DNA of 64,000 nucleotides, taken from Calditrichales bacterium MX18-03. GTDB lineage: Bacteria; Bacillota; Clostridia; Lutisporales; Lutisporaceae. A model generated the notes under the pieces. It saw only the letters and a list, made by a program, of their open reading frames with translations, did no database searches and was not told the origin of the DNA. A program made the translations under genes and the position numbers. Location of the stretch: NCBI GenBank assembly GCA_021083345.1, contig JAJGRE010000001.1, positions 930,001-994,000 of the forward strand, in the 5' to 3' direction. Positions within the stretch are counted from its first letter, which is position 1; the number at the start of each line of letters is the position of its first letter. Below, piece by piece: positions 19,961-55,595 of this stretch.

Positions 19961-22231
19961 TTATTCTTCATTTTCAAAAACCTTGCTGATGGTCTTCGCC
20001 AATTGTTCGCCTGTAACAGGTTTGGCAACATATTCGTCGATGATCATCTTATCCAGGTAATCCAGAACCCTTTCCTCAACAAATCCTGTAACTATGATCA
20101 ACTTTATGCGGGGATTTATAACCTTGAGGCGCTCTGCAAGCTCCGTCCCTTTAATATAGGGCATGGTCTGGTCCATAACGGCAACATCGAATCTGGCCGG
20201 GTTGCGGCTGAATAATTTCAACGCCTCAATACTGTTTTCTTCTGCAACCACCTTAAAACCGAATTGCTCCAGCCCTTTTTTCATGACCCTCAGCACTTTC
20301 TGCTCATCATCCACCAACAGTACGGTTTTGGGCTGTTTCAAGCCCATGAAATGAATATGCTCTTGTTCTTCCTGCTTGTGCTGGATTCTGGGGAAATAGA
20401 CCTTGAAGGTGCTTCCTTTTCCAGTCTCACTCTCTACTGTGATAAGCCCTTTGTGGTTTTCAACAATACCCTGTACCACGAACAACCCCAGTCCCGTACC
20501 TTCACCCGTAGGCTTAGTAGTGAAAAACGGGTCATATATCTTTTCTATGGTTTCCTTGCTCATCCCATAGCCGTTATCGCTTACTGTAATGCATACGTAG
20601 GTATCCGCATCATGGGCAAATTTACTCAGTTCCCGGATATCGTCTCTTTTGACGGTGTCCAGTGATATTGCCATTGTTCCGCCTGAATACTTCATGGCGT
20701 GAAAGGCATTGGTACAAAGGTTGAAAATAACCTGATGGATCTGGACTCTGTTTGCCATAATACAGCCGGTATCGGTCTTTTCTTCAAAGACCACCTCTAC
20801 ATTGGGTGTTATGGTGGATCTTACCAGGTTCAGGGTTTCTTCCACGATCTGCCTGACTTGTACAGGCCTATACTTTGAGGCGTTATTGTCAGACCGGCTG
20901 AACACCAGAATCCGTTCAATGATATCCTTTGCTTTATGTGAAACATCATAGATCTCATTGATATAATCATAGCTCTCGCTGCCCTTGTCCAATTTGTTTC
21001 TCAGGATTTCCGCATATCCGAGGATTGGCGTCAGCAGGTTGTTAAACTCATGGGCTATTCCTCCGGTCAGTGTTCCCACAACCTGAAGCTTTTGGGAATG
21101 CTGCAGCTGCATATCCTTTTTTCTCAGTTCCTCCATTGCTGAATTCAATTCCTTGAGATATTTTGTCTCAACCTCCAGGGCTTCCTTGTTCTTTTGGATC
21201 TTTAGAATGATGAATATTGCTGTTGCCAGTATGAGAATAATGAAGATAAAAATTTCGATGATTTTTATCTGATTCTGCCTTAATGGAACTTCGACCTCAT
21301 CATAGGACATAACCATGGCAACGACCCAAAAATGTTCTCCCAAACGCGCTCTTGAAAATGCATTGAGCTTTTTGGTCTTTTCAAGCACCTCATCCGTCCA
21401 CCAATAGGAGTAGTACTCCTGTGTGCCTTCCTCATTGTTGTACTGCTGGTTAATAAGCTCCTCCAGCTCGCTGAAATCAAAATTGGGGTGAAGCTCTTTT
21501 CTGGTCTTGATGACATCGATACCTATCTGATCCGCTGCAGGGTGCATTAAAATTATGCCATTGTCATCCTTCACCATTCCGTAGCCCTTTTGCCCTACCT
21601 TTACAGGCATGACAAGCTTTTTATACATGGTCTCCAAGCTCACTGAGGCCGCAATGACCCCTTCAAACTCGCCGCCCAAAAATACCGGTTCAAACAGAAA
21701 AAGCTTGAACTGTCCGCTTTTATCCTGTCGGGCGCTGCTGAGAAATGAAGTCTTATCCCGCAATACCCGCTCGATATCCGCTCTAAGCATTGCATCATAC
21801 TCCAAAGCGGACTCTTCACCCATTCTGGGATAACGGTAAAGGATCCGTCCTTCTTTACTGATCTGATAGACTCTCTGGATATCGTTTTCCTGTGCATCGA
21901 CAAAAGCTTTCAATGCAGCCTGTACAGACGAATCGTTGGCATTTTTCATACCGAGTCCGATTTCACTGTTCAGGGCCAATATCTTCAAACTATCCATCTT
22001 TTCGCTTGCAAAAACCTCAAGGCTTCTGCTGGTGGATTTGCTGATGGTAAGAAGATGCTGCAGCTGCTGATCGATAATCATATTCCGGTTCGTTTTATAG
22101 GTCTGAAATGTCATTTGAACCAGTATGATAAGAAGCACCAGTATGATCAGGGTGGAATAAAAAATAATCTTCTTATTAAGAAGCTTGCGGATAACTGTGT
22201 TTATTTCAAACTTAATATCTTCTCCCGACAT
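19961..22231 (-). CDS. Hybrid sensor histidine kinase with extracytoplasmic Cache-like domain
   Basis: About 756 residues. Order: membrane helix (about 22-42), extracytoplasmic region of about 280 residues resembling a double-Cache sensor, second helix (about 325-345), short coiled linker, HisKA with the phospho-acceptor in GGIAHEFNN (His near 394), HATPase_c (NLCTNAFHAM, DNGYGM, GTGLGL) and a C-terminal receiver (VDDE near 640, acceptor Asp near 687 in AVMDQTMP). The start is placed at ATGTCGGG, 9 bases after GAGGAG. It lies 14 bases before citC and so is likely co-expressed with the citrate genes; the ligand may be citrate or another carboxylate. It is not a CitA-type kinase. Confidence 0.88.
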   Translation of the reverse strand: MSGEDIKFEINTVIRKLLNKKIIFYSTLIILVLLIILVQMTFQTYKTNRNMIIDQQLQHLLTISKSTSRSLEVFASEKMDSLKILALNSEIGLGMKNANDSSVQAALKAFVDAQENDIQRVYQISKEGRILYRYPRMGEESALEYDAMLRADIERVLRDKTSFLSSARQDKSGQFKLFLFEPVFLGGEFEGVIAASVSLETMYKKLVMPVKVGQKGYGMVKDDNGIILMHPAADQIGIDVIKTRKELHPNFDFSELEELINQQYNNEEGTQEYYSYWWTDEVLEKTKKLNAFSRARLGEHFWVVAMVMSYDEVEVPLRQNQIKIIEIFIFIILILATAIFIILKIQKNKEALEVETKYLKELNSAMEELRKKDMQLQHSQKLQVVGTLTGGIAHEFNNLLTPILGYAEILRNKLDKGSESYDYINEIYDVSHKAKDIIERILVFSRSDNNASKYRPVQVRQIVEETLNLVRSTITPNVEVVFEEKTDTGCIMANRVQIHQVIFNLCTNAFHAMKYSGGTMAISLDTVKRDDIRELSKFAHDADTYVCITVSDNGYGMSKETIEKIYDPFFTTKPTGEGTGLGLFVVQGIVENHKGLITVESETGKGSTFKVYFPRIQHKQEEQEHIHFMGLKQPKTVLLVDDEQKVLRVMKKGLEQFGFKVVAEENSIEALKLFSRNPARFDVAVMDQTMPYIKGTELAERLKVINPRIKLIIVTGFVEERVLDYLDKMIIDEYVAKPVTGEQLAKTISKVFENEE

Positions 22232-22386
22232 TTTATCACTCCTCATTGCGTCAGTACCTTTCTATCATTATACTTTGTCCATAGCCGTCCTTCCATATAG
22301 AAATACTGCCGCAGCGCTTCCGTTCCTGATCAACCGGCGGCATGCCGGCTGCTGATAAAATACAGGCTGCTTATTTTCCTTCACTA

Positions 22387-22435
22387 TCTTTAATGATAAA
22401 GCCTAAATCTTAAAATATTCTGACAAAGTCTTAAA
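22387..22435 (+). repeat. Three TCTTtAA direct repeats at 21-bp spacing
   Basis: TCTTTAA at 22387, TCTTAAA at 22408 and TCTTAAA at 22429: exact 21-base steps (two helical turns), ending 25 bases before the -35 box. This is the arrangement expected for OmpR/PhoB-type dimers binding head to tail, and suggests autoregulation. Confidence 0.5.
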
Positions 22436-22460
22436 GTTTTTTAAGATTTGCATGACTTTC

Positions 22461-22490
22461 TTGTTTTCCGATTCCGCAGGGTGGTATAAT
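22461..22490 (+). promoter_or_regulatory. Promoter of the response regulator gene
   Basis: TTGTTT (22461-22466), 18 bases, TATAAT (22485-22490) with an extended TGG just before the -10 box; 57 bases before the start codon. Confidence 0.7.
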
Positions 22491-22547
22491 TTTATATGCA
22501 ACTGTGTTTGCAAATTCCGTCATAATGCTCAAGGGAGGTTGGAGACA

Positions 22548-23246
22548 ATGGCAAAAACAAAAGTACTGATTGCCGATGATGAAGCTCATATCAGGAAATT
22601 GGTTGCAGCATCTCTTGAATGTGAGAACATAGAGGTCGTTCAGGCATGCAATGGAAGCGATGCGCTTGAGCTGGCGAGGCAAGACGCCTTTGATCTGATC
22701 ATTCTGGATATTATGATGGAGGATATCACCGGCTATGATGTCATCAGCAGAATACGTTCGCTGGGTATCAATACCCCGATTTTTCTCTTAAGCGGACGGA
22801 GTGAGGATCACGATAAAATCATCGGATACGGTATCGGCGCAGATGGTTATATCACAAAACCTTTCAGCCCCTCCGTGCTCTGTGCCCAAGTGAAGACACA
22901 CATCCGGCGCTACAAGGAGCTGCTTGGTGCAAAGGAAAAAAGCTCTAAAATAAACCTGGGCCCCTTTACTTTCAACGAAAAAACATACACCTGCAGCAAG
23001 AACGGCATCCTTTTGAATCTGTCGTCCAAGGAGCTGCAGCTTCTGAAGTTTTTCATGGAAAACCCCAACCAGGTTTTTACCAAGGAGCAGCTGTACCAGA
23101 ATGTATGGGGTGATATCGTCATTGATGATAATACCATCATGGTATATGTACGTCATCTCCGGTCGAAGATTGAGGATGTGCCCGAGAAACCCAAATACCT
23201 GCAGACCGTATGGGGAATCGGCTACAAGTTCTCGGCTGAAGGATAG
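22548..23246 (+). CDS. OmpR/PhoB-family response regulator
   Basis: 232 residues. The receiver domain has the acidic pair DD at 10-11, phospho-acceptor Asp54 and the conserved Lys near 104 in ITKPF. A winged-helix DNA-binding domain (about 130-230) ends in the usual YVRHLRSKIE and TVWGIGYKF. The start is ATG at 22548 behind GGGAGG; an upstream in-frame ATG adds 32 unsupported residues. It diverges from the hybrid kinase of the citrate operon, its most likely partner, although that kinase has its own receiver domain. The promoter shows direct repeats suited to autoregulation. Confidence 0.9.
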   Translation: MAKTKVLIADDEAHIRKLVAASLECENIEVVQACNGSDALELARQDAFDLIILDIMMEDITGYDVISRIRSLGINTPIFLLSGRSEDHDKIIGYGIGADGYITKPFSPSVLCAQVKTHIRRYKELLGAKEKSSKINLGPFTFNEKTYTCSKNGILLNLSSKELQLLKFFMENPNQVFTKEQLYQNVWGDIVIDDNTIMVYVRHLRSKIEDVPEKPKYLQTVWGIGYKFSAEG

Positions 23247-23249
23247 GAG

Positions 23250-23294
23250 AAGGGCTCTCCCGCCCTATGTCAATTCATAAGCTGGAAAGCCCTT
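23250..23294 (+). terminator. Terminator hairpin of the response regulator gene
   Basis: AAGGGCTCTCC (23250-23260) pairs with GGAAAGCCCTT (23284-23294) across a 23-base loop, 11 pairs with one G-U. On the minus strand the same element would form the 3' hairpin of the structured RNA described next. Confidence 0.55.
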
Positions 23295-23396
23295 CATTAG
23301 ATAGCTGCGCTTTTGCGTTAATGCGGTACGCCTAACGTGCTTACTCGGTAAGCTTTTATCCTGTTACGGAAAGGTGCGGCAGCAAAAGCACCCATC
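23250..23396 (-). ncRNA. Putative structured guide-type RNA downstream of the dead TnpB-like gene
   Basis: Minus-strand reading, directly 3' of the TnpB-like stop codon. A 10-bp helix, GUGCUUUUGC (23391-23382) with GCAAAAGCGC (23316-23307), encloses about 65 nt containing a UCC/GGA hairpin (23370-23359), a perfect GCUUAC-CGA-GUAAGC hairpin (23353-23339) and a GUUA/UAAC hairpin with an inner GCG/CGC pair (23336-23317). After the closing helix come 12 unpaired nt (23306-23295), then an 11-bp hairpin shared with the terminator on the other strand. A perfect TATAAT lies just upstream. Position and shape match the omega/guide RNAs encoded at the 3' end of tnpB genes. No family-specific sequence was recognised, so the call rests on structure and place. 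Confidence 0.55.
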
Positions 23397-23408: not shown

Positions 23409-24914
23409 CTAAACAAACTCTATCAGCTTCATAAAATCCGGCACGCTGCGAATTTTCTTGGCGATGCTGGCTTTTTTATTCCTTTCCCTATTCCAGGTTT
23501 CACTGCTTTGCAGCAGAATGTCATCCACAATCAGACTGATTTTTTCGCGAAGCCTTTCAATCTGATTCTCATGATGTGGCACAAAATAGTTCAGCCCGAT
23601 CAGCCGGCTTATGAACCATACTCCGTCATCGGCGCTCCGGACTTTGATCTTGAAGGTTGAATGCCTGTAGTTGATCAGCTTTCTCGCCAGGTTGAGGCTT
23701 CCCAGTTTCTCAATTTCCAAGGTTGCACCGCAGCTGGTACAGATAAAGGTATCCTTGTTGAACCGGTTCAATTTGGAGTTGCAGCCGCATACATGGCAGC
23801 TGTAAAATATGCCCACCGAGCTGACCTTTACAGGGGCCGGCAGCCCCTTTTCCGGCAGCTTGAATGCTAGAAGCCTTGCCATCCTGATATAGGCATCGCA
23901 GTTGTAAATTGGCTGGCTGTTCATAAAGTCATCTGCCCAATGCAGTCTGTCGCCTTTCTCCAAAAGGTTCTGAAGGATGACGGCGGACTTGTACTCCAGG
24001 GCAATCTCCACAATGCTGTTGGCAGCCTTATGCAGCTCATCCAAAGGCACTGCTGCGTTCTTAGACGTTTGCCCGGTGCGAGAAAGGGTCCCGGCTGCCA
24101 CAACATTTCCTTCCGGATCGGCAACGGTATAGCATAAATCATTCTTTAGTCCTCTCGCTACGCCCAGATAAGTTTCTGTCCTGATCTCTTCGGCTTTTCC
24201 GGTATCAACACTGATGGCCAGATAGTACGAACCGTCTTTCCTGCCCAGCTTGGCCGTCCTCAATATCTCCGGCCTTTCCAGGGAAGCTCGGAGGATCTCT
24301 TCCTGGTATTTCCCGAAGGACAAGGGCACGATTATATAGGCTTCCTTGCTTTTTCCCCGTTCCACCACACCGGCGGACCGATGAATATAAGTCAGCTTTC
24401 CCTCCTGATCCCCCTGCTGCGGCACCACTTTATTGGCATGCTTTGCATTTAAGAGGTGCAGTTTTGCAAAATACCGGTTTTTTTCACTGTCATAAAGCAG
24501 GCAATAGCTCCTGCCGGTATCGTATCTGCAGAAATAAACAGGCCTGAGCCTTTCAACCTCCGTACCCGTACGGCAGTTGGCAAGCGGAAAGCTGGTACCC
24601 GGCCTCAGTGCCTTGAGCCTGAAATAGCCTGCCAAGGTCATCCCTACCTCCAGCTTCAGGGCATCTTTGAACGGTTGTACATCAAACTGGTTCAGCTCTT
24701 TGCTCCGCTCGCTGCTCACCCATTTGGAAAGGGCCAGCGCATTCTGTGTGCCTTTGGTACCGGCAAATGCATCCTTGATTTCCTTAAGCTCGGTATAAGC
24801 CTTTTCCAGTAAAAAGCGGTATGCCCTGTTGTAGTTGGTTATGGCTTCATCTATGACCAGGCATTTGCGCTTGCTTGGCTTATTCAATTTTAATACGATC
24901 GTGCGTAAGCCCAT
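23409..24914 (-). CDS. Nuclease-dead TnpB-like protein (TldR-type)
   Basis: 501 residues related to TnpB/IS605 OrfB and small Cas12 proteins. The C-terminal half shows the RuvC framework, but every catalytic acid is replaced. RuvC-I reads LGVARGLKN with Ala253 instead of Asp, RuvC-II reads VILQNL with Gln315 instead of Glu, and RuvC-III reads LGSLNLARKL with Ser406 instead of Asp. The inserted zinc finger is intact (Cys373, Cys376, Cys392, Cys395). About 90 residues follow RuvC-III. No TnpA or element ends lie nearby. The start is ATG at 24914 behind GAGG, which overlaps the phosphatase stop codon; a TTG five codons earlier lacks a site. Known dead TnpB proteins (TldRs) are RNA-guided repressors. 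Here the gene is the last of a sensory-hydrogenase operon. Confidence 0.85.
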   Translation of the reverse strand: MGLRTIVLKLNKPSKRKCLVIDEAITNYNRAYRFLLEKAYTELKEIKDAFAGTKGTQNALALSKWVSSERSKELNQFDVQPFKDALKLEVGMTLAGYFRLKALRPGTSFPLANCRTGTEVERLRPVYFCRYDTGRSYCLLYDSEKNRYFAKLHLLNAKHANKVVPQQGDQEGKLTYIHRSAGVVERGKSKEAYIIVPLSFGKYQEEILRASLERPEILRTAKLGRKDGSYYLAISVDTGKAEEIRTETYLGVARGLKNDLCYTVADPEGNVVAAGTLSRTGQTSKNAAVPLDELHKAANSIVEIALEYKSAVILQNLLEKGDRLHWADDFMNSQPIYNCDAYIRMARLLAFKLPEKGLPAPVKVSSVGIFYSCHVCGCNSKLNRFNKDTFICTSCGATLEIEKLGSLNLARKLINYRHSTFKIKVRSADDGVWFISRLIGLNYFVPHHENQIERLREKISLIVDDILLQSSETWNRERNKKASIAKKIRSVPDFMKLIEFV

Positions 24915-24925
24915 TGTTCTTTTCC

Positions 24926-26098
24926 TCAACTGTATTCGATTCTTACCTGCTTTCCGATGCTTCTCAGGCAGTGGACGATCTCTTCCACCAGCTTGAGTTT
25001 CAAACTCAGACTCAGCGGCAGCTCGGTGTTCTGGTGGGCCGGATTCATGGCACGGCCTACATAAATGTCAATATTTGTACTTTCATCCATAATCATCTTT
25101 GCCAGTCTGGAAGCGCCATCCTTATTGTTCAGGTTCAGAAAATCCTCCATGGTACTCTCCGAAGCTGTGCAGGCCTTTATCAGCTCCAATGCCCGCCTGA
25201 TGGTCAGCACACCTTCTGTTACCAGGCTGATACCTTCAATCTCCGCTGTAGGCGGGATTGCTGGGTTGAAATAATCAAAGTTGGGTACAACCTTTTTGCC
25301 CGATTCCCTTGCCACGATTTGGGCTGTCGTTCCGCCGCACACGACTTTGATGCCTTCTTTCTCAAGGAATTTTGCAACCACCTGGGAATCCTGCTCCTTA
25401 TATACAGGCGGTCCCACCATCAGGCTCAGATTGAGAGGCTTCTTCACTCTGACAGCCGATACGGTTGTATCGTCTCCCGGCCTTTGGGCGTACAAGCTGG
25501 TGCAAGCTGATAAAAGCAGTTTGGTAACAGCCTTTGAAGACATATCGGCTTTATAGGCGTTCTGAAGGAATTGCGCCACGTTTCCCCACTGCCAGCCCAG
25601 GTTCAGCCTTCCCCCGATCCCTGCATGAATGACACCGTCGCTGACCATGACAAATAAGTCATCCTGTTCCAGCTCAAACCGGGCTTCCTTTACGGTTTTT
25701 CCGCTGATGGACCTGGTGACGGTTTCCAAAGGCTGCAGCCTGCCCTTCCGAAGTCTGAAGATGGACGGGTTGTCGAACTCTACCAGGTAACCCTTTCCAT
25801 TGCTGAAAAGCTGGAGAATGGTAAAAGTGGAATAGGCGATAGCCCTTTCCTTGCAAACCGGGAGCGTACTGGCAATGGTTTCTACCGCTTCGTCCAGATC
25901 AGACCCGCCTGCCAGCATGGTTGCGATGATCTTGGCGGTAAGCGTCGCCAGGATGTTGGCTTTCACACCGCTTCCCAGCCCATCTGCCAGCACAATGATG
26001 ACGGATTGGTCGTTTCGGATGATTTCCACCTTATCACCGCACAGCTCCTCTTTATGCTTGCTCAGGCTTTCAAAATAAGTTTCCAGATAAAAACTCAT
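24926..26098 (-). CDS. SpoIIE-type PP2C protein phosphatase
   Basis: 390 residues. The N-terminal 230 form a PP2C/SpoIIE phosphatase domain with metal-binding aspartates in VLADGLGSG, MVSDGV and PGDDTT. The C-terminal 160 residues (from about VGPPVY) are a separate domain that I do not recognise. Its start overlaps the hydrogenase stop (ATGA), so the two are translationally coupled. PP2C phosphatases next to group C [FeFe]-hydrogenases are a known arrangement and are thought to pass the hydrogen signal on by dephosphorylating a partner. No kinase or anti-sigma partner is in this operon. Confidence 0.85.
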   Translation of the reverse strand: MSFYLETYFESLSKHKEELCGDKVEIIRNDQSVIIVLADGLGSGVKANILATLTAKIIATMLAGGSDLDEAVETIASTLPVCKERAIAYSTFTILQLFSNGKGYLVEFDNPSIFRLRKGRLQPLETVTRSISGKTVKEARFELEQDDLFVMVSDGVIHAGIGGRLNLGWQWGNVAQFLQNAYKADMSSKAVTKLLLSACTSLYAQRPGDDTTVSAVRVKKPLNLSLMVGPPVYKEQDSQVVAKFLEKEGIKVVCGGTTAQIVARESGKKVVPNFDYFNPAIPPTAEIEGISLVTEGVLTIRRALELIKACTASESTMEDFLNLNNKDGASRLAKMIMDESTNIDIYVGRAMNPAHQNTELPLSLSLKLKLVEEIVHCLRSIGKQVRIEYS

Positions 26099-27816
26099 TT
26101 GCTATCACTCATCTCTGCCATGATGGATTTTTTCAGCTTTGTCAAAGCCACCTTGGTTTCAGCTGTGGTTTCTCCCAGAAGGCTGGCAATTTCCTGGGCG
26201 ACCCGCATCTGCTTTTCAATGACCTTCTGGGCAATATCCACGTTCTCGGAGCGGAGCTGGTGCATATGACGGTACCGCTGCTCCTCCTCTGTGATATCTT
26301 TTATGATGACGACGGTGATCTTTTGTTCAGGAATATAAATGATGGATTGCTCGGCAATAACGCCGTAGTCCTCATAGAAAAACTTGCTGGCGTTAATATT
26401 ATTGCCGCTTTGGTGAACTTTTTCGATGTCTTCGCACTTCAGGATTTCGTGTATCTTTCTGCCTTCCACGGTTTGGGTATCCAGTCTGAACATCCTTCTC
26501 GCAGAGTTGTTCACCTCATGAATGCACAGCTCGCTGTCCAAAGCGAATATCGCATGGGGCGTCGTTTCGATGATCAGGTTGGATATGGATTCCGCTCTTT
26601 CCTTCATATAGGGTAAACACATATGGAGCGATGCCTTTTTATGGTAGACGGCAACGGCCTTATCACGGCAGGTCGAGTAACCGCAAGCGCCGCAGTTCAA
26701 TTCCTTGTCCTTGGTAAATTTGCCGATACTGTTCAGAATGCTCTGTATGGCTTCCTGGGTCGGCATCATATTGCTGTTGGACCGGCTGGAAAACTTCCTG
26801 CTGAAATCGATTTTTACGGCTGCAGCCGGTAAGGCATTCTCCTTGACGGAACTCCGCTTGACAAATTCAATCAGCCTTGTCCTGGCTTCCAGTGCTCCGC
26901 CCTTGACATAGCTCATACAAGGGCCGCCGATACAGCCTCCGGAACAGCTGTTCATCTCTATGAAATAGTTTTCGGTCCCATCGTTCTTAATGGAGTCCAA
27001 AACCTTCATGCAGCGGTCTACACCATCGACACTGATGCACCTGTAATTCTTCTTGGCTTTATTGTCAATGGTCTTCAAAATGCCTCCGGGCAATGGATAA
27101 ATCCGTGTGGATGTTTCTTTTGCCGCTTTGACCTCCTCGGAGAACTGACCATCTGCATAGATTCCCGATTCCGTCATCCATTCCTCCAATTCTTGAAAGG
27201 TCAGAACCGCATTGATGGTTCCGAAGTTGTGCATATCGCTGCATTCCTGCTTTTTTGAGGCGCAGGGACCGATAAAGACCACCTTGATCCTGGAACCGTA
27301 TGTTTCCCTGAGCATCTTTGCATGGGCAACCATGGGTGAAATCACCGGCGCCATTTGGCTGACCAGTTCCGGATAGTATTTTTCTATTAAGTATACAATG
27401 GCGGGGCATGCCGTTGTGATAATGTTTTTCATTTCACGGGCATTCATCAGCTTTTCGTACTGTCTGGATACCTGTATTGCACCAAAGGCTGTCTCTTCCA
27501 CATGGGTAAAGCCCAACCCCTTCAAAGCTTGTACCATCCACTTTTCATTGACGTTCTCGAAAGCTGAAACAAAGGAGGGTGCCAAGCTCACATAGACCTT
27601 CTCCTTCTTTTTTATGAAATTTTTAACGATTTCGGCATCTTGCCGGATGCTTTTGGCATTCTGAGGACAAACCGTGAGACAGTTGCCGCAAAGGATGCAG
27701 TCATCCTCAATAAGCTCCACCTGGCTGTTATTGAAAGCAATGGCTTTCACCGGGCAGTGCCGAATGCATTTGTAACAATTCCTGCAATCCGCTTTTTTAT
27801 ATTGAATGATACTCAT
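26095..27816 (-). CDS. hydS: Sensory [FeFe]-hydrogenase (group C, HydS-like) with PAS domain
   Basis: 573 residues. Two N-terminal 4Fe-4S motifs (C-x2-C-x2-C-x3-C) are followed by an H-cluster domain with variant signatures: TTACPAIV in place of TSCCPxW, GPCASKK in place of MPCTAKK, and SCSGGCIGGPC. The first cysteine of the usual pair, the proton-relay residue, is Ala. A further Cys-rich segment (CGACGYSTC) and a PAS domain (about 430-540) end in a helical tail. This is the layout of hydrogen-sensing group C enzymes rather than catalytic ones. It overlaps the 2Fe-2S gene upstream and the phosphatase gene downstream, forming one signalling operon with the dead TnpB-like gene. Confidence 0.85.
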   Translation of the reverse strand: MSIIQYKKADCRNCYKCIRHCPVKAIAFNNSQVELIEDDCILCGNCLTVCPQNAKSIRQDAEIVKNFIKKKEKVYVSLAPSFVSAFENVNEKWMVQALKGLGFTHVEETAFGAIQVSRQYEKLMNAREMKNIITTACPAIVYLIEKYYPELVSQMAPVISPMVAHAKMLRETYGSRIKVVFIGPCASKKQECSDMHNFGTINAVLTFQELEEWMTESGIYADGQFSEEVKAAKETSTRIYPLPGGILKTIDNKAKKNYRCISVDGVDRCMKVLDSIKNDGTENYFIEMNSCSGGCIGGPCMSYVKGGALEARTRLIEFVKRSSVKENALPAAAVKIDFSRKFSSRSNSNMMPTQEAIQSILNSIGKFTKDKELNCGACGYSTCRDKAVAVYHKKASLHMCLPYMKERAESISNLIIETTPHAIFALDSELCIHEVNNSARRMFRLDTQTVEGRKIHEILKCEDIEKVHQSGNNINASKFFYEDYGVIAEQSIIYIPEQKITVVIIKDITEEEQRYRHMHQLRSENVDIAQKVIEKQMRVAQEIASLLGETTAETKVALTKLKKSIMAEMSDSK

Positions 27817-28063
27817 TTTTCAACCTTCTTACTATTTTTTCTTCAAAAATCTGTTTGGCATTGGCGGCATTCACGCCCCCAAGAAAATCGTCGCCGATTT
27901 TTACGGCAACACCGTTGGTACATTGACCCAGGCAGAACGATGCTTTCAGTTCCACCTTATCCTGCAGCCTATTGGCTTTGATAAGCTCCTGAAATAATCT
28001 GACGATCTCGTAAGAACCCTTTAAATGGCAAGAGCTTCCCACGCATATATATACTTCCAGCAT
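27797..28063 (-). CDS. Thioredoxin-like [2Fe-2S] ferredoxin
   Basis: 88 residues with the NuoE-type 2Fe-2S fold: C-x4-C (CVGSSC) near residue 7 and C-x3-C (CLGQC) near residue 44. It lacks the N-terminal helical part of full NuoE/HydC. Its reading frame overlaps hydS by 20 bases. It is the first gene of the sensory hydrogenase operon and likely exchanges electrons with HydS. Confidence 0.85.
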   Translation of the reverse strand: MLEVYICVGSSCHLKGSYEIVRLFQELIKANRLQDKVELKASFCLGQCTNGVAVKIGDDFLGGVNAANAKQIFEEKIVRRLKNEYHSI

Positions 28064-33954: not shown

Positions 33955-34146
33955 TTACACCGCTAAAGCTTCATAGGACTCATATCTTTCCTGAGCTGCC
34001 ATGCTGATCAGGAAACCAAGGTAATTATCATCCTTGCAAGGGAACTCGGTGTCGGCTTTTGCTTCGTCCACTGCAAACATACAGTTTTCAAACTGGCAGG
34101 TCTCACCTTTTTGTTTATAATATGTGCAATACTTACAGTTCATCAC
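33955..34146 (-). CDS. Small cysteine-rich protein, unknown function
   Basis: 63 residues (GTG or the following ATG as start, GGAG 7-10 bases upstream). Six cysteines, in the pattern CKYC near the N-terminus, C-x4-C (CQFENC) and one more near residue 37, suggest zinc or Fe-S binding. I do not recognise the family. It lies downstream of a Rex-like site and of the 20-bp motif also found before hydABC, and upstream of the Stn-like genes with only a weak hairpin between. Confidence 0.6.
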   Translation of the reverse strand: MMNCKYCTYYKQKGETCQFENCMFAVDEAKADTEFPCKDDNYLGFLISMAAQERYESYEALAV

Positions 34147-34328: not shown

Positions 34329-34348
34329 TATTATTAGATACGGTTTTT
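34329..34348 (-). promoter_or_regulatory. Shared 20-bp motif, copy A
   Basis: Plus strand TATTATTAGATACGGTTTTT; identical at 19 of 20 positions to 55576-55595 before hydABC. It lies 75 bp from the Rex-like site, compared with 76 bp there. It contains TATCTAAT on the minus strand, also present in the unpaired segment of the putative guide RNA. Confidence 0.5.
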
Positions 34349-51362: not shown

Positions 51363-53063
51363 CTAAGATTCTTTATTCAATTCATGCCTGTGAAGCAGTT
51401 CATGCTTGTCTTTCAGTATGCCTTCATACAGCGCTATAATGGTGGGGTTTTCTTCCGACCGCTTGATGGTGGACCCGCTGTCTGCATTGTAGATCCCTTT
51501 TGTCCGCTGCTTCTTGATGTGTGCTGACTGGGGCACCGGCTGACCGGCACCGCCGATGCAGCCGCCCGGGCAAGCCATTACTTCTACAAAATCGTATTGC
51601 TTTTCTCCGGCTTTGATCATTTTCACAAGTGCTTCGGCGTTTTTGAGTCCATGCACCACTGCAATGGTTACTTTTCTGCCATCCAGTTCAATCTCAGCTT
51701 CCTTAACGCCTTCCATACCCCTGGTGCCCGCAAAAGCGAGATTCTTCAGGCTGCCTATCGTTTTATCACTGCATAGATGCCGCAGCACAGCTTCTGCTAC
51801 CCCGCCGCTTGCACCGAAAAGGACGCCTGCTCCGCTTGAAAGTCCGAATGGCATATCCACGGCTTCTTCTTCCAATTCGTTGAACATAATACCGTTCTCT
51901 TTGATCATCATGGCAAGCTCCTGAGTGGTAATCACCATATCCACGTCACGGGTGCCGCTGTTGCGGTTTTCAGGTCTTGCTGCCTCATACTTCTTTGCTG
52001 TACAAGGCATGATGGATATGACCACTGTCTCTCTTCCTTCTGCTTCCCTATCGGTCTTGAAATGTTCTTTAATGACAGCACCAAACATCTGCTGGGGTGA
52101 TAAGCATGTGGAAACCTGCTCCATGAGCTCCGGGAATTTTTGCTCCGCATACTTGAACCAGGCCGGGCAGCAGGACGTGAACAACGGAAGCCTTTCCCCC
52201 TTCTGCAGGCAGCCTGCAAATTCCCGGCTTTCCTCCATGACGGTAAGGTCGGCGGCCATCGAGGTGTCATATACCTGATTGAAGCCCATCCTTCTCAGTG
52301 CGGCCACAATTTTCCCCATGGTTACGCTGCCGGGCTCCAGTCCGAATTCCTCGCCGATGGCTACCCGCACCGCCGGAGCGATCTGGGCTATGACAAACTT
52401 GTTTTTATCGTTCAGCACTTCCCATGCGTTGTCGATATCTCTTTTGATAACCAGAGCCCCTGTCGGGCAGACCGTCCTGCATTGCCCGCAGTTTACGCAG
52501 TTTACGTTGCTGATGGGCCGGTTGAAGGCTGTGGTTACCTGCATTTTTGCTCCCCTGTAGGCGAAGTCTAACGCGCCAACGCCTTGAACTTCATTGCACA
52601 TCCTGACACAGTCGCCGCAGAGAATGCACTTGTTGGGGTTTCTGACAATGGATACACTGCTGTTGTCAACCGGCAGCTCCTTTTCATCCTTGTCAAACCG
52701 GACCTTCTTGATGCCGAACCGTATTGCCAGTTCCTGCAGGATGCATCTTCCTGTCTTTTCACATACCGTGCAGTCCCTGTCATGGTTTGCCAGGATCAGC
52801 TCCAGGATCATTTTTCTGTGCTTTTTCAGCTTTTGCGTATTGGTATATATCTCCATCCCATCCTTGGGAACCGTTGAACAGGAGGCCATTATTCCGCCCC
52901 ATTTGTCTTCTACCATGCACATTCTGCAAGCCCCGTAAATACTCAGCTCAGAATGATAGCAGAACGTCGGCAGGTCTATGCCGGCTTTTCTTATAACCTC
53001 AAGGATATGTTTTTCTCCGTTGAAATCTACTCTTTGTCCGTCAATCAGCATGCTCCCTTTCAT
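51363..53063 (-). CDS. hydA: HydA, catalytic subunit of bifurcating [FeFe]-hydrogenase
   Basis: 566 residues: 2Fe-2S domain (about 1-75), His-Cys 4Fe-4S site (HDRDCTVCEKTGRC), two 4Fe-4S motifs (about 140-200), then the H-cluster domain with all three canonical signatures TSCCPAW, MPCTAKK and CPGGCIGGAGQP, and a short tail with the small-subunit part. It reduces protons or oxidises hydrogen. With HydB and HydC it couples NADH and reduced ferredoxin to hydrogen formation. Starts 4 bases after the hydB stop behind AGGAGG. Confidence 0.95.
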   Translation of the reverse strand: MKGSMLIDGQRVDFNGEKHILEVIRKAGIDLPTFCYHSELSIYGACRMCMVEDKWGGIMASCSTVPKDGMEIYTNTQKLKKHRKMILELILANHDRDCTVCEKTGRCILQELAIRFGIKKVRFDKDEKELPVDNSSVSIVRNPNKCILCGDCVRMCNEVQGVGALDFAYRGAKMQVTTAFNRPISNVNCVNCGQCRTVCPTGALVIKRDIDNAWEVLNDKNKFVIAQIAPAVRVAIGEEFGLEPGSVTMGKIVAALRRMGFNQVYDTSMAADLTVMEESREFAGCLQKGERLPLFTSCCPAWFKYAEQKFPELMEQVSTCLSPQQMFGAVIKEHFKTDREAEGRETVVISIMPCTAKKYEAARPENRNSGTRDVDMVITTQELAMMIKENGIMFNELEEEAVDMPFGLSSGAGVLFGASGGVAEAVLRHLCSDKTIGSLKNLAFAGTRGMEGVKEAEIELDGRKVTIAVVHGLKNAEALVKMIKAGEKQYDFVEVMACPGGCIGGAGQPVPQSAHIKKQRTKGIYNADSGSTIKRSEENPTIIALYEGILKDKHELLHRHELNKES

Positions 53064-53067
53064 TTTC

Positions 53068-54939
53068 TCATACCTCCTCTACTGCAGAAAACGGACAGGC
53101 TTCCACGCATGCGCCGCATTTTATGCATTTCCTATTGTTTATGACAAAGGCTTCCTTTACTTTTCCGGTAATCGCTGTTGCAGGACATGCCTTTGCACAT
53201 TTGCTGCAGCCTTTGCACAGCGCTTCATTAATGACAAAGGAGCTTAAGCTTTTGCAATTGCGGGTGGGGCATTTCTTTTGCACCACATGAGCCAGGTATT
53301 CGTCCCTGAAATACTTCAATGTACTGATTACCGGGCTGGGTGCAGTCTTGCCCAGGCCGCAGAGCGCGGTACTGCTGATGGTATCCGCCAGCTCTTCCAG
53401 CATGTCCAGGTCTTCCAGGCTGCCTTTCCCTGCAACGATTCCCTCCAGTATTTCCAGCATTCTTTTTGTCCCTTCCCGGCAGGGGACGCATTTGCCGCAG
53501 GATTCCTTCTGTGTGAAGTTCATAAAGAACCTTGCCACTTCAACCATGCAGGTGTCTTCATCCATGACAACGAGGCCGCCGGAACCGATCATGGCGCCTA
53601 CTTTTTTCAGCGAATCAAAATCAAGAGGCAATTCCATATGGGTTTCTGTCAGACAGCCGCCGGAAGGTCCGCCGATCTGGACCGCTTTGAACTTCTTGCC
53701 GTCGTTGATGCCGCCGCCGATGTCGAATATGACTTCTTTCAGAAGGGTTCCCATCGGAACCTCTATCAGTCCCGTATTGTTAACATTGCCTGTAATGGCA
53801 AAGGCCTTGGTTCCGGGACTATTTTCCGGTCCGATAGAGCGGTACCACTGGGCTCCCTTCAGTATGATATGCGGTACATTGGCAAAGGTTTCAACATTAT
53901 TCAGCATGGTCGGTTTGCCCCACAAGCCCTGTTCGACGGTTCTTGGCGGCTTCACCCTGGGCATGCCTCTCTCCCCTTCTATGGACTGGGTCAGCGCACT
54001 GCTCTCTCCGCACACGAAAGCACCGGCACCCTTGTTGATCTTTATGTCAAAGCTGAAGCCGGAACCCAATATGTTTTCACCCAAGAGCCCTATTTCCCTG
54101 GCCTGCTCCACTGCCAGCTGCAGCCTTGCAACCGAAAGCGGGTATTCCGCACGGACATAGATATAGCCTTCCGATGCCTTGCATGCGTACCCTGCGATAA
54201 TCATGCCCTCCAGCACGCTATGGGGATTTCCATCCATAACGCTTCCATCCATGAAAGCGCCTGGGTCTCCCTCGTCCCCATTGCATACCACATACTTGAC
54301 TTCACTATTCTGGGCTAATACCTGAGACCATTTTCTTCCTGCCGGATAACCGCCGCCCCCTCGTCCCCTCAGATTCGATTTGGAAATTTCGTCGCAGATC
54401 TGCTCGGGTGTCATTTGGAGCAGCGCCTTGCCTGCTGCAGTATAGCCGCCCTTGGCAATATATTCCATAATGTTCTCACAATCAATCTGCCCACACTGCC
54501 CCAGCACCAATCTGGTTTGTTCGCTGTAAAAGGGTATTTCAACCGGTGTATGGCACACGCGGCTGCCGGACTGATACATCAGCCTTTCGACGGGTTGGTT
54601 CTGAAGCAGCGTTTTTTCTATGATCTCGACGCAATCCTGCTTGTCCACCCTGAAATATTGATAATCGAAGGGTTCTACCCTGACAAGCGGTCCCAGCTGA
54701 CAAAGACCCTGGCAGCCGCTTTTTTTGATGCCAATGCCCTTTTCTTCCGCCTCCAGCACGACATCAACCAGCAATCCTTTTTCCGCTACAAGCCGCTTAA
54801 GTTCTTCATATATGCCAAATGAGCCGGCTGCAACACATCCCGTTCCGCAGCAGACAAAGACGCGCTTTTCCTGGTTTTCAAGCGCTTTGCGGGCTGCTAC
54901 AGCAACTTTTTCAAACTGTTCTATGTTATTAACCTTCAT
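53068..54939 (-). CDS. hydB: HydB, NAD/FMN subunit of bifurcating hydrogenase
   Basis: 623 residues: N-terminal thioredoxin-like 2Fe-2S domain, NuoF core with LRGRGGGGYPAGRKW (near 190), SLBB, 4Fe-4S site CGKCVPCREGTKRM and two C-terminal 4Fe-4S motifs (CKGCSKC and CIKCGAC). It carries FMN and the NAD site. Its ATG overlaps the hydC stop (ATGA). About the same layout as the StnB-like protein at 31555-33309, so the two complexes are paralogous. Confidence 0.93.
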   Translation of the reverse strand: MKVNNIEQFEKVAVAARKALENQEKRVFVCCGTGCVAAGSFGIYEELKRLVAEKGLLVDVVLEAEEKGIGIKKSGCQGLCQLGPLVRVEPFDYQYFRVDKQDCVEIIEKTLLQNQPVERLMYQSGSRVCHTPVEIPFYSEQTRLVLGQCGQIDCENIMEYIAKGGYTAAGKALLQMTPEQICDEISKSNLRGRGGGGYPAGRKWSQVLAQNSEVKYVVCNGDEGDPGAFMDGSVMDGNPHSVLEGMIIAGYACKASEGYIYVRAEYPLSVARLQLAVEQAREIGLLGENILGSGFSFDIKINKGAGAFVCGESSALTQSIEGERGMPRVKPPRTVEQGLWGKPTMLNNVETFANVPHIILKGAQWYRSIGPENSPGTKAFAITGNVNNTGLIEVPMGTLLKEVIFDIGGGINDGKKFKAVQIGGPSGGCLTETHMELPLDFDSLKKVGAMIGSGGLVVMDEDTCMVEVARFFMNFTQKESCGKCVPCREGTKRMLEILEGIVAGKGSLEDLDMLEELADTISSTALCGLGKTAPSPVISTLKYFRDEYLAHVVQKKCPTRNCKSLSSFVINEALCKGCSKCAKACPATAITGKVKEAFVINNRKCIKCGACVEACPFSAVEEV

Positions 54940-55418
54940 TTTGATTCATTCTCCTTAATCTCCTTAATGACCGCTAAGGCAGACTCCGGTGTCATCTTGG
55001 CATATACCTTGCCGTTGACGAGGATGACCGGAGCAAGTCCGCATGCTCCAAGGCAGGATACCGTTTCCAAAGTAAAAAGAAAATCATCAGTGGTATGCTT
55101 TGAACTGTTCAGTCCCAGCTCTTTTTTTATGGTGTCCAGGATGGGAATGGATTTCTTGACGTGGCACGCTGTACCGTCACAGATCTTGATGATATATTTT
55201 CCCTTTGGCTCCAACGAAAAGTTTTCGTAAAAAGTGGCAACGCTGAAGATTTTTGAAAGAGGTATGTCGATTTCGGTTGAAATGTGCTCAAGCACCTCTT
55301 CCGGCAGATAGTTGTATGCACTCTGGATTTCCTGCAGCATGGCGATCAACGCCGACCGGTTATAGGCATATCCGGCTAAGATGCCGTCAACCTCCGGGTA
55401 TTTGCTTTTGTCCAACAT
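54936..55418 (-). CDS. hydC: HydC, [2Fe-2S] subunit of bifurcating hydrogenase
   Basis: 160 residues, NuoE family, with 2Fe-2S ligands CDGTAC and CLGAC. The start is ATG at 55418 behind AAGGAGG; an in-frame GTG three codons earlier lies inside the ribosome site. First gene of hydCBA. Upstream lie a Rex-type operator and the 20-bp motif shared with the Stn-like region, so expression probably follows the NADH/NAD ratio and possibly the hydrogen signal. Confidence 0.93.
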   Translation of the reverse strand: MLDKSKYPEVDGILAGYAYNRSALIAMLQEIQSAYNYLPEEVLEHISTEIDIPLSKIFSVATFYENFSLEPKGKYIIKICDGTACHVKKSIPILDTIKKELGLNSSKHTTDDFLFTLETVSCLGACGLAPVILVNGKVYAKMTPESALAVIKEIKENESK

Positions 55419-55482
55419 GGGAAGCACCTCCTTAAAACTATAAATTGTGTGTTGTACAATGTATACAATTCATGTCGCTATC

Positions 55483-55575: not shown

Positions 55576-55595
55576 TATTATTAGATATGGTTTTT
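55576..55595 (-). promoter_or_regulatory. Shared 20-bp motif, copy B
   Basis: Plus strand TATTATTAGATATGGTTTTT, 19 of 20 identical to 34329-34348, 76 bp from the Rex-type site and about 160 bases before hydC. Contains TATCTAAT on the minus strand. Confidence 0.5.

What the first reader, a model, noticed from the sequence alone, without database searches (positions are those of the whole stretch)
23409..24914. Nuclease-dead TnpB-like protein encoded in a sensory [FeFe]-hydrogenase operon
Seen: TnpB/Cas12-like protein with intact zinc-finger cysteines but RuvC residues replaced (Asp to Ala253, Glu to Gln315, Asp to Ser406). Its ribosome site overlaps the stop codon of the SpoIIE-type phosphatase, and no transposase or element ends are nearby. 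Known: dead TnpB proteins (TldRs) have been exapted as RNA-guided repressors in other operons. Inference: here the module is the output of a hydrogen-sensing pathway (HydS, phosphatase, TnpB-like). I know of no described TldR tied to hydrogenases.
Basis: partly seen in the sequence, partly recalled or inferred. Interest (0 to 1): 0.95.

Follow-up and report, generated by a model that had tools for sequence, protein, structure and literature searches.

The report
RNA-guided switch for hydrogen-metabolism genes
A gene-editing-type (Cas12f/TnpB-like) protein that has lost its DNA-cutting site sits, with its own small RNA, beside a hydrogen-sensing enzyme in several groups of anaerobic bacteria, and the RNA's short tip matches a DNA signal in front of hydrogen- and redox-metabolism genes, so it looks like a natural RNA-guided gene switch that responds to hydrogen.

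Summary
Window 23409-24914(-) encodes a nuclease-dead Cas12f/TnpB-fold protein: RuvC-I Asp->Ala253 and RuvC-II Glu->Gln315 are right, but RuvC-III aligns to Glu402, not Ser406. Twenty-one further genomes of the class carry a homologue, one copy each. All 22 genes lie by a sensory [FeFe]-hydrogenase gene (hydS) and a SpoIIE-type phosphatase gene; RuvC-I is dead in all 14 aligned.

New here: just 3' of all 22 genes lies a structured RNA unknown to Rfam, its helices and pseudoknot supported by compensatory changes. It ends in UAUCU(A/G)... before a hairpin. Promoters of hydCBA and the hydS operon carry AAAACCN-TATCTA. In the window's genome the RNA's 8-nt tip UAUCUAAU matches three sites exactly, the only AAAACCRTATCTAA sites in 4.7 Mb, each before a hydC/nuoE-type operon. 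Comparable loci of tnpB-negative genomes lack the motif. Sites lie at fixed offsets upstream of predicted -35 boxes (about -90, -79, -60), as class-I activator sites do.

Best reading: a hydrogenase-linked RNA-guided transcription factor with a very short guide, more likely an activator than a TldR-type repressor. RNA binding, DNA targeting, direction of control and the H2 signal are inferred, not shown.

The parts
23409..24914 (-). Nuclease-dead Cas12f/TnpB-like protein, 501 aa; residues 1-420 Cas12f fold, 418-501 extra C-terminal domain
23249..23392 (-). Conserved structured RNA (candidate guide RNA): P1 hairpin, pseudoknot, P3 hairpin, unpaired tip, terminator-like hairpin
   Evidence: 22 of 22 homologous loci, covariation; 5' end approximate
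23304..23308 (-). 3' strand of pseudoknot, GCAGC, pairs with GCUGC in the P1 loop
   Evidence: Paired 5/5 in 22 of 22, two compensatory positions
23296..23303 (-). Candidate guide UAUCUAAU, unpaired, between pseudoknot and terminator hairpin
   Evidence: 8/8 identity with three genomic sites
23249..23295 (-). Terminator-like hairpin after the guide (weak U run)
   Evidence: Fold
24926..26098 (-). SpoIIE-type (PP2C) phosphatase
   Evidence: PF07228 E 2.1e-17; adjacent in 22 of 22 loci
26095..27816 (-). HydS, sensory [FeFe]-hydrogenase with FeS and PAS domains
   Evidence: PF02906, PF04060, PAS
27797..28063 (-). Thioredoxin-like 2Fe-2S protein, first gene of the hydS operon in most relatives
   Evidence: PF01257
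28225..33880 (-). Upstream redox genes of the same strand: molybdopterin/2Fe-2S oxidoreductase, HydB/NuoF-like, HydC/NuoE-like
   Evidence: Pfam
34333..34347 (-). Candidate target site 1, AAAACCG-TATCTAAT, upstream of the operon that leads to hydS and the Cas12f-like gene
51363..55427 (-). hydCBA, [FeFe]-hydrogenase operon with NADH-binding subunit
   Evidence: Pfam
55580..55594 (-). Candidate target site 2, AAAACCA-TATCTAAT, upstream of hydC

Best explanation
A catalytically dead Cas12f-like protein has been domesticated as the DNA-binding output of the HydS/phosphatase H2-sensing module. It binds the structured RNA encoded just 3' of its gene. The RNA's unpaired tip, directly after the pseudoknot (UAUCUAAU here), is a very short guide. 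The complex recognises AAAACCR (PAM/TAM-like, read by the protein) followed by TATCTA(AT) on DNA upstream of hydrogenase and other redox operons. Bound at about -90, -79 or -60, on one face of the helix relative to RNA polymerase, it most likely activates transcription, with HydS and the phosphatase gating it in response to H2 or redox state. Shown by sequence: dead RuvC-I, conserved linkage, conserved and covarying RNA, guide-site match, co-occurrence of sites with the protein, fixed spacing to predicted promoters. Inferred: RNA binding, DNA binding, activation, control by H2.
For: Fold: complete Cas12f fold; RuvC-I Asp lost in 14 of 14. Linkage: 22 of 22 next to HydS-phosphatase, single copy; the HydS of tnpB+ genomes form nearly one clade. 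RNA: 22 of 22; P1 5/5 pairs in all with double changes at 3 pairs, pseudoknot 5/5 in all with compensatory changes at 2 pairs, P3 with double changes at 4 of 5 pairs. Sites: recognisable in 17 of 21 hyd loci; in the own genome 3 exact AAAACCRTATCTAA, all before hydC/nuoE-type operons, all with 8-nt guide identity; in relatives also before nfnA-like and iron-alcohol-dehydrogenase genes; not found in 16 hydS and 30 hydB loci of tnpB-negative genomes. Guides fit their own genome's sites better than swapped guides, P 0.00025. Best-scoring -35 at 48-50 nt in 10 of 13 promoters against a shuffle mean of 0.5 and maximum of 4 in 500. A published TldR works with guides as short as 6 nt (PMC13418256).
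Against: No expression, RNA-binding or DNA-binding data. Guide-site identity is only 5-7 nt in many genomes (10 nt in L018, 8 in L015 and L114) and 3-4 nt in L034 and L109. Four f50 loci (L019, L039, L107, L108) have RNA and protein but no recognisable site. UAUCU is invariant in the RNA and could be scaffold rather than guide. The guide and promoter statistics use related genomes. Activation rests on predicted promoters only; the -35/-10 of the window hydC promoter is weak (shuffle P 0.4).
Confidence: 0.72

Rival explanations
1. The same RNA-guided complex acts as a TldR-like repressor of the hydrogenase operons, and the HydS/phosphatase signal relieves it.
For: Known dead TnpB homologues with adjacent guide RNA are repressors (PMC13418256). 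The site in L110 nearly touches the -35.
Against: Most sites lie 18-50 nt upstream of the predicted -35, at helically spaced positions and as pairs 30-31 nt apart. Deletion of a related sensor/phosphatase operon lowered hyd expression in Thermoanaerobacterium (PMC8924675), though that organism was not checked here for this protein.
Confidence: 0.17
2. AAAACCRTATCTA is the box of an ordinary, unidentified transcription factor; its likeness to the RNA tip is coincidence, and the RNA serves the protein in some other way.
For: The shared invariant core is only five bases. If any register were allowed, an 8-nt match between a 110-nt RNA and a 15-bp box would arise by chance a few times in a hundred (rough estimate). 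Bases after TATCTA are conserved in sites beyond what the guides match.
Against: The match sits exactly where a guide should start, directly after the pseudoknot, and in the window ends where the hairpin starts. Box and protein co-occur. TATCTG sites occur only in genomes whose RNA reads UAUCUG, and own guides fit better than swapped ones.
Confidence: 0.08
3. The protein is a fossil or defence-type Cas12f that has merely become trapped in the operon and has no regulatory role.
For: RuvC is inactivated; the closest profiles are CRISPR effectors.
Against: Full-length, single-copy and collinear in 22 of 22 loci from five families, with conserved zinc ribbon and covarying RNA; no CRISPR-like repeat.
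Confidence: 0.03

Closest known systems
TldR (TnpB-like nuclease-dead repressors; PMC13418256 and the earlier Wiegand 2024 paper, the latter not held)
   Same: Dead RuvC, RNA encoded beside the gene, short guide (6 nt suffices in one TldR), lasting chromosomal gene partners
   Different: Closer to Cas12f than to TnpB; C-terminal extra domain; tip apparently 5-10 nt and nearly invariant across bacterial families; sites upstream of the -35, so probably activation; tied to HydS and a phosphatase
Exapted dCas12f that works with a sigma factor (structures 9n9c, 9n9m; its function is from my own knowledge, not read here)
   Same: Dead Cas12f-like protein, guide RNA, positive control of transcription
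   Different: No sigma-factor gene seen as constant neighbour; sites lie upstream of predicted ordinary -35/-10 promoters; match to 9n9c (Z 15.3) is below that to AsCas12f (Z 20.1)
Type V-M Cas12m2 (PMC10442227)
   Same: Cas12 whose RuvC does not cut double-stranded DNA and which acts by binding
   Different: Works in CRISPR immunity; no CRISPR-like repeat here
Type V-F Cas12f (AsCas12f1, OsCas12f)
   Same: Whole fold over residues 1-420, zinc ribbon
   Different: RuvC-I Asp lost; no CRISPR-like repeat; C-terminal extension
HydS/HfsB-phosphatase modules (Ruminococcus albus, Thermoanaerobacterium; PMC11837493, PMC8924675)
   Same: Sensory hydrogenase with a serine phosphatase beside hydrogenase genes
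   Different: No RNA-guided output is mentioned in the passages read here

Membership tests
TldR | TnpB/Cas12-superfamily fold | tested here: met
   AsCas12f1 Z 20.1, TnpB 8h1j Z 15.7
TldR | inactivated RuvC | tested here: met
   RuvC-I Asp lost in 14 of 14 aligned; RuvC-II Glu lost in 13 of 14; RuvC-III Glu or Asp
TldR | structured guide RNA encoded next to the gene | tested here: met
   As a covarying RNA locus in 22 of 22; binding to the protein cannot be tested here
TldR | guide matches a genomic site beside a TAM at a promoter | tested here: met
   Own genome 8/8 nt at three sites with AAAACCR; weaker in several relatives
TldR | represses transcription | not testable with these tools
   Site positions upstream of the predicted -35 argue against it
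TldR | descent from transposon TnpB | tested here: inconclusive
   Nearer Cas12f by HMM and fold; no superfamily tree was built
CRISPR type V-F Cas12f effector | catalytic RuvC triad | tested here: not met
CRISPR type V-F Cas12f effector | adjacent CRISPR array | tested here: not met
   No regularly spaced 12-mer triplets in the window and ten related loci
dCas12f-sigma RNA-guided transcription system | dedicated sigma factor beside or fused to the gene | tested here: inconclusive
   Constant neighbours are only hydS, the phosphatase and usually the 2Fe-2S gene; not every neighbour was run against Pfam
Group C sensory [FeFe]-hydrogenase (HydS) | H-cluster domain plus C-terminal FeS and PAS domains | tested here: met
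   PF02906, PF04060, PAS
Group C sensory [FeFe]-hydrogenase (HydS) | senses H2 | not testable with these tools
   By family only; the role is called putative in PMC8924675

The most novel reading that the evidence does not exclude
A natural RNA-guided transcription activator that works from class-I upstream positions with a 6-8 nt guide fixed by evolution, gated by an H2-sensing hydrogenase through a phosphatase, and controlling the cell's hydrogenase and redox regulon.
Probability: 0.55. Interest if true: 0.95.

Novelty: new variant of a known kind. Interest (0 to 1): 0.9.

Why it matters
How sensory [FeFe]-hydrogenases pass on their signal is not known; their sensory role itself is still called putative (PMC8924675). 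This gives a concrete, testable output: a named protein, a named RNA, a DNA motif and a short target list. It would also place an exapted Cas12 protein in central energy metabolism, with guide and targets held together across several bacterial families, and would be a case of natural RNA-guided activation at ordinary promoters. It bears on control of H2 and ethanol formation in fermenting bacteria.

Tried and rejected
A long guide (12 nt or more) with a full match elsewhere in the loci: none apart from hairpin self-matches and chance; the short tip was recognised only after aligning promoters. Rfam: no match. CRISPR array: none. A family member elsewhere in the phylum: none in 398 sampled genomes apart from the window's own. 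Sequence search of genome contigs: one locus, on a contig of the same length as one in G074, so taken as the same genome. The adjacent OmpR regulator and histidine kinase as partners: not constant neighbours in relatives, though other two-component genes flank the f50 loci and L113. Motif hits inside genes in relatives were taken as chance: genome-wide counts of AAAACCNTATCTR do not exceed the reversed control pattern, so only position and co-occurrence carry weight. Foldseek of the C-terminal domain gave no match under E 0.001; the second look favours 3k6q at Z 8.9, too weak to name a function. Profile search of that domain in PDB sequences: nothing credible. The Wiegand 2024 TldR paper (PMC11702177) and the R. 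albus paper (PMC4248817) are not held.

Full report
What is there. The ORF at 23409-24914(-) encodes a 501-aa protein. Alone it scores weakly against Pfam, but it hits Cas12f profiles (PADLOC E 5.6e-10; NCBIfam Cas12f2 E 2.7e-7). All 14 aligned family members hit Cas12f models. The AlphaFold2 model (mean pLDDT 82.9) aligns over residues 2-420 with AsCas12f1 at Z 20.1 and with TnpB 8h1j at Z 15.7. The RuvC-I Asp is lost in every aligned homologue; the other two positions vary. The zinc ribbon is kept. Residues 418-501 are an extra domain (pLDDT 88.7), whose only fair structural match is 3k6q, an antitoxin-like protein (Z 8.9).

Conservation and linkage. Searches of the class and of three families found 21 further genomes with a homologue, one copy each, from families f21, f25, f50 and f53; f1 is the window's own. 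A sample of 398 genomes of the phylum gave no other. In all 22 loci the gene follows HydS and a SpoIIE-type phosphatase; in most, hydCBA lies close by. In three f21 loci an AdhE-type gene (Pfam of L015) sits between phosphatase and Cas12f-like gene. HydS itself occurs in 117 of 391 genomes of the class; those with the Cas12f-like gene form nearly one clade (two label changes on the tree against 12.3 when shuffled). This looks like vertical, domesticated inheritance and not a mobile element.

The RNA. Directly 3' of the stop codon lies a conserved noncoding stretch in all 22 loci. Hairpin P1 (GGUGC...GCACC in the window) pairs 5 of 5 in all 22, with double changes at three pairs. Its loop GCUGC pairs with a downstream GCAGC, 5 of 5 in all 22, with A-U in L014, L018 and L112 and U-A in L017. 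Hairpin P3 changes sequence between families while staying paired, with double changes at four of five pairs. After AGC every RNA reads UAUCU, then A or G and a few variable bases; the examples folded have a terminator-like hairpin next, weak only in L017. Rfam has nothing similar. A pseudoknot shortly before the guide is the layout expected of TnpB/Cas12f guide RNAs (own knowledge).

The sites. Aligning promoters of hydC and of the 2Fe-2S-hydS operon showed AAAACCN-TATCTA. It is recognisable, in places with one or two changes, in 17 of 21 loci whose promoters could be read; the exceptions are four close relatives in f50. In the window's genome AAAACCRTATCTAA occurs exactly three times in 4.69 Mb: upstream of the operon that leads to the Cas12f-like gene (34333-34347), upstream of hydCBA (55580-55594), and upstream of a third nuoE/nuoF-type operon elsewhere. 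All three share 8 of 8 bases with the RNA tip UAUCUAAU, which is exactly the unpaired stretch before the hairpin. In relatives, further intergenic sites precede an nfnA-like gene in G100 and G193, and an iron alcohol dehydrogenase and a separate hydC in G100 (these gene names come from reading the translations). No AAAACC-TATCT box occurs in 16 hydS loci or 30 hydB loci from genomes without the Cas12f-like gene. Guides fit their own genomes' sites better than shuffled guides (P 0.00025); the genomes are related, so this is support and not proof. The overall number of motif hits per genome is no higher than for a reversed control: the signal is in where the hits lie.

Direction. Scoring sigma70-type promoters downstream of each site put the best -35 at 48-50 nt in 10 of 13 promoters (shuffles: mean 0.5, maximum 4 in 500). 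This corresponds to site centres near -90; f25 hydC promoters give about -79, and second copies in f21 about -60. Pairs of sites lie 30-31 nt apart. Steps of about one or three helical turns upstream of the -35 are what class-I activators such as CRP show (own knowledge). This is why I prefer activation; the promoters are predictions and the window hydC promoter is weak.

Mechanism proposed. HydS senses H2 or redox state, the phosphatase relays it, and the Cas12f-like protein with its RNA binds AAAACCR by protein contact and TATCTA(AT) by a short R-loop, recruiting RNA polymerase to hydrogenase, Nfn-like and alcohol dehydrogenase operons, with feedback on its own operon in the window. A 6-nt guide suffices for a published TldR (PMC13418256), so so short a guide is workable. 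Deletion of a related sensor/phosphatase operon lowered hyd expression in Thermoanaerobacterium (reported in PMC8924675).

Limits. Nothing here shows expression, binding or regulation. Guide identity is 5-7 nt in many relatives. Four f50 loci lack a visible site. UAUCU might be scaffold. Whether the substrate of the phosphatase is this protein is unknown.

Verdict. It is a new variant of RNA-guided transcription factor. I do not file it as a TldR, since repression is untested and its nearest kin look like Cas12f; it does appear to work like one in being guided by an adjacent RNA.

Noticed in passing
L015, L017, L018, L038, L109, L110 promoters: Palindromes of the form TTGTTAAN4TTAACA(A/T) near hyd and other promoters look like Rex boxes, suggesting that NADH/NAD control is layered on the same promoters.
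   Followed up: no
L015 10639-13242; ORFs of similar length in L016, L018 and L038: In three f21 loci an AdhE-type aldehyde/alcohol dehydrogenase gene (Pfam of L015) lies between the phosphatase and the Cas12f-like gene; in L038 an ORF of the same length lies downstream.
   Followed up: partly
L019, L039, L107-L110, L113: In f50 a hybrid histidine kinase and a response regulator follow the RNA; in L113 a Cache-domain histidine kinase does.
   Followed up: no
window 33955-34143(-): A small cysteine-rich protein (62 aa, no Pfam match) is the first gene after target site 1; a similar reading frame seems to lie upstream of the 2Fe-2S gene in some f25 genomes.
   Followed up: no
window 19961-23246: A histidine kinase with receiver domain (-) and an OmpR-type regulator (+) lie beside the module, the latter converging on its terminator; they are not constant neighbours in relatives.
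   Followed up: partly
L109 and L110, just upstream of the RNA: AAAACCATATAC, close to the target motif, directly precedes the RNA; it may be a degenerate site or chance.
   Followed up: no
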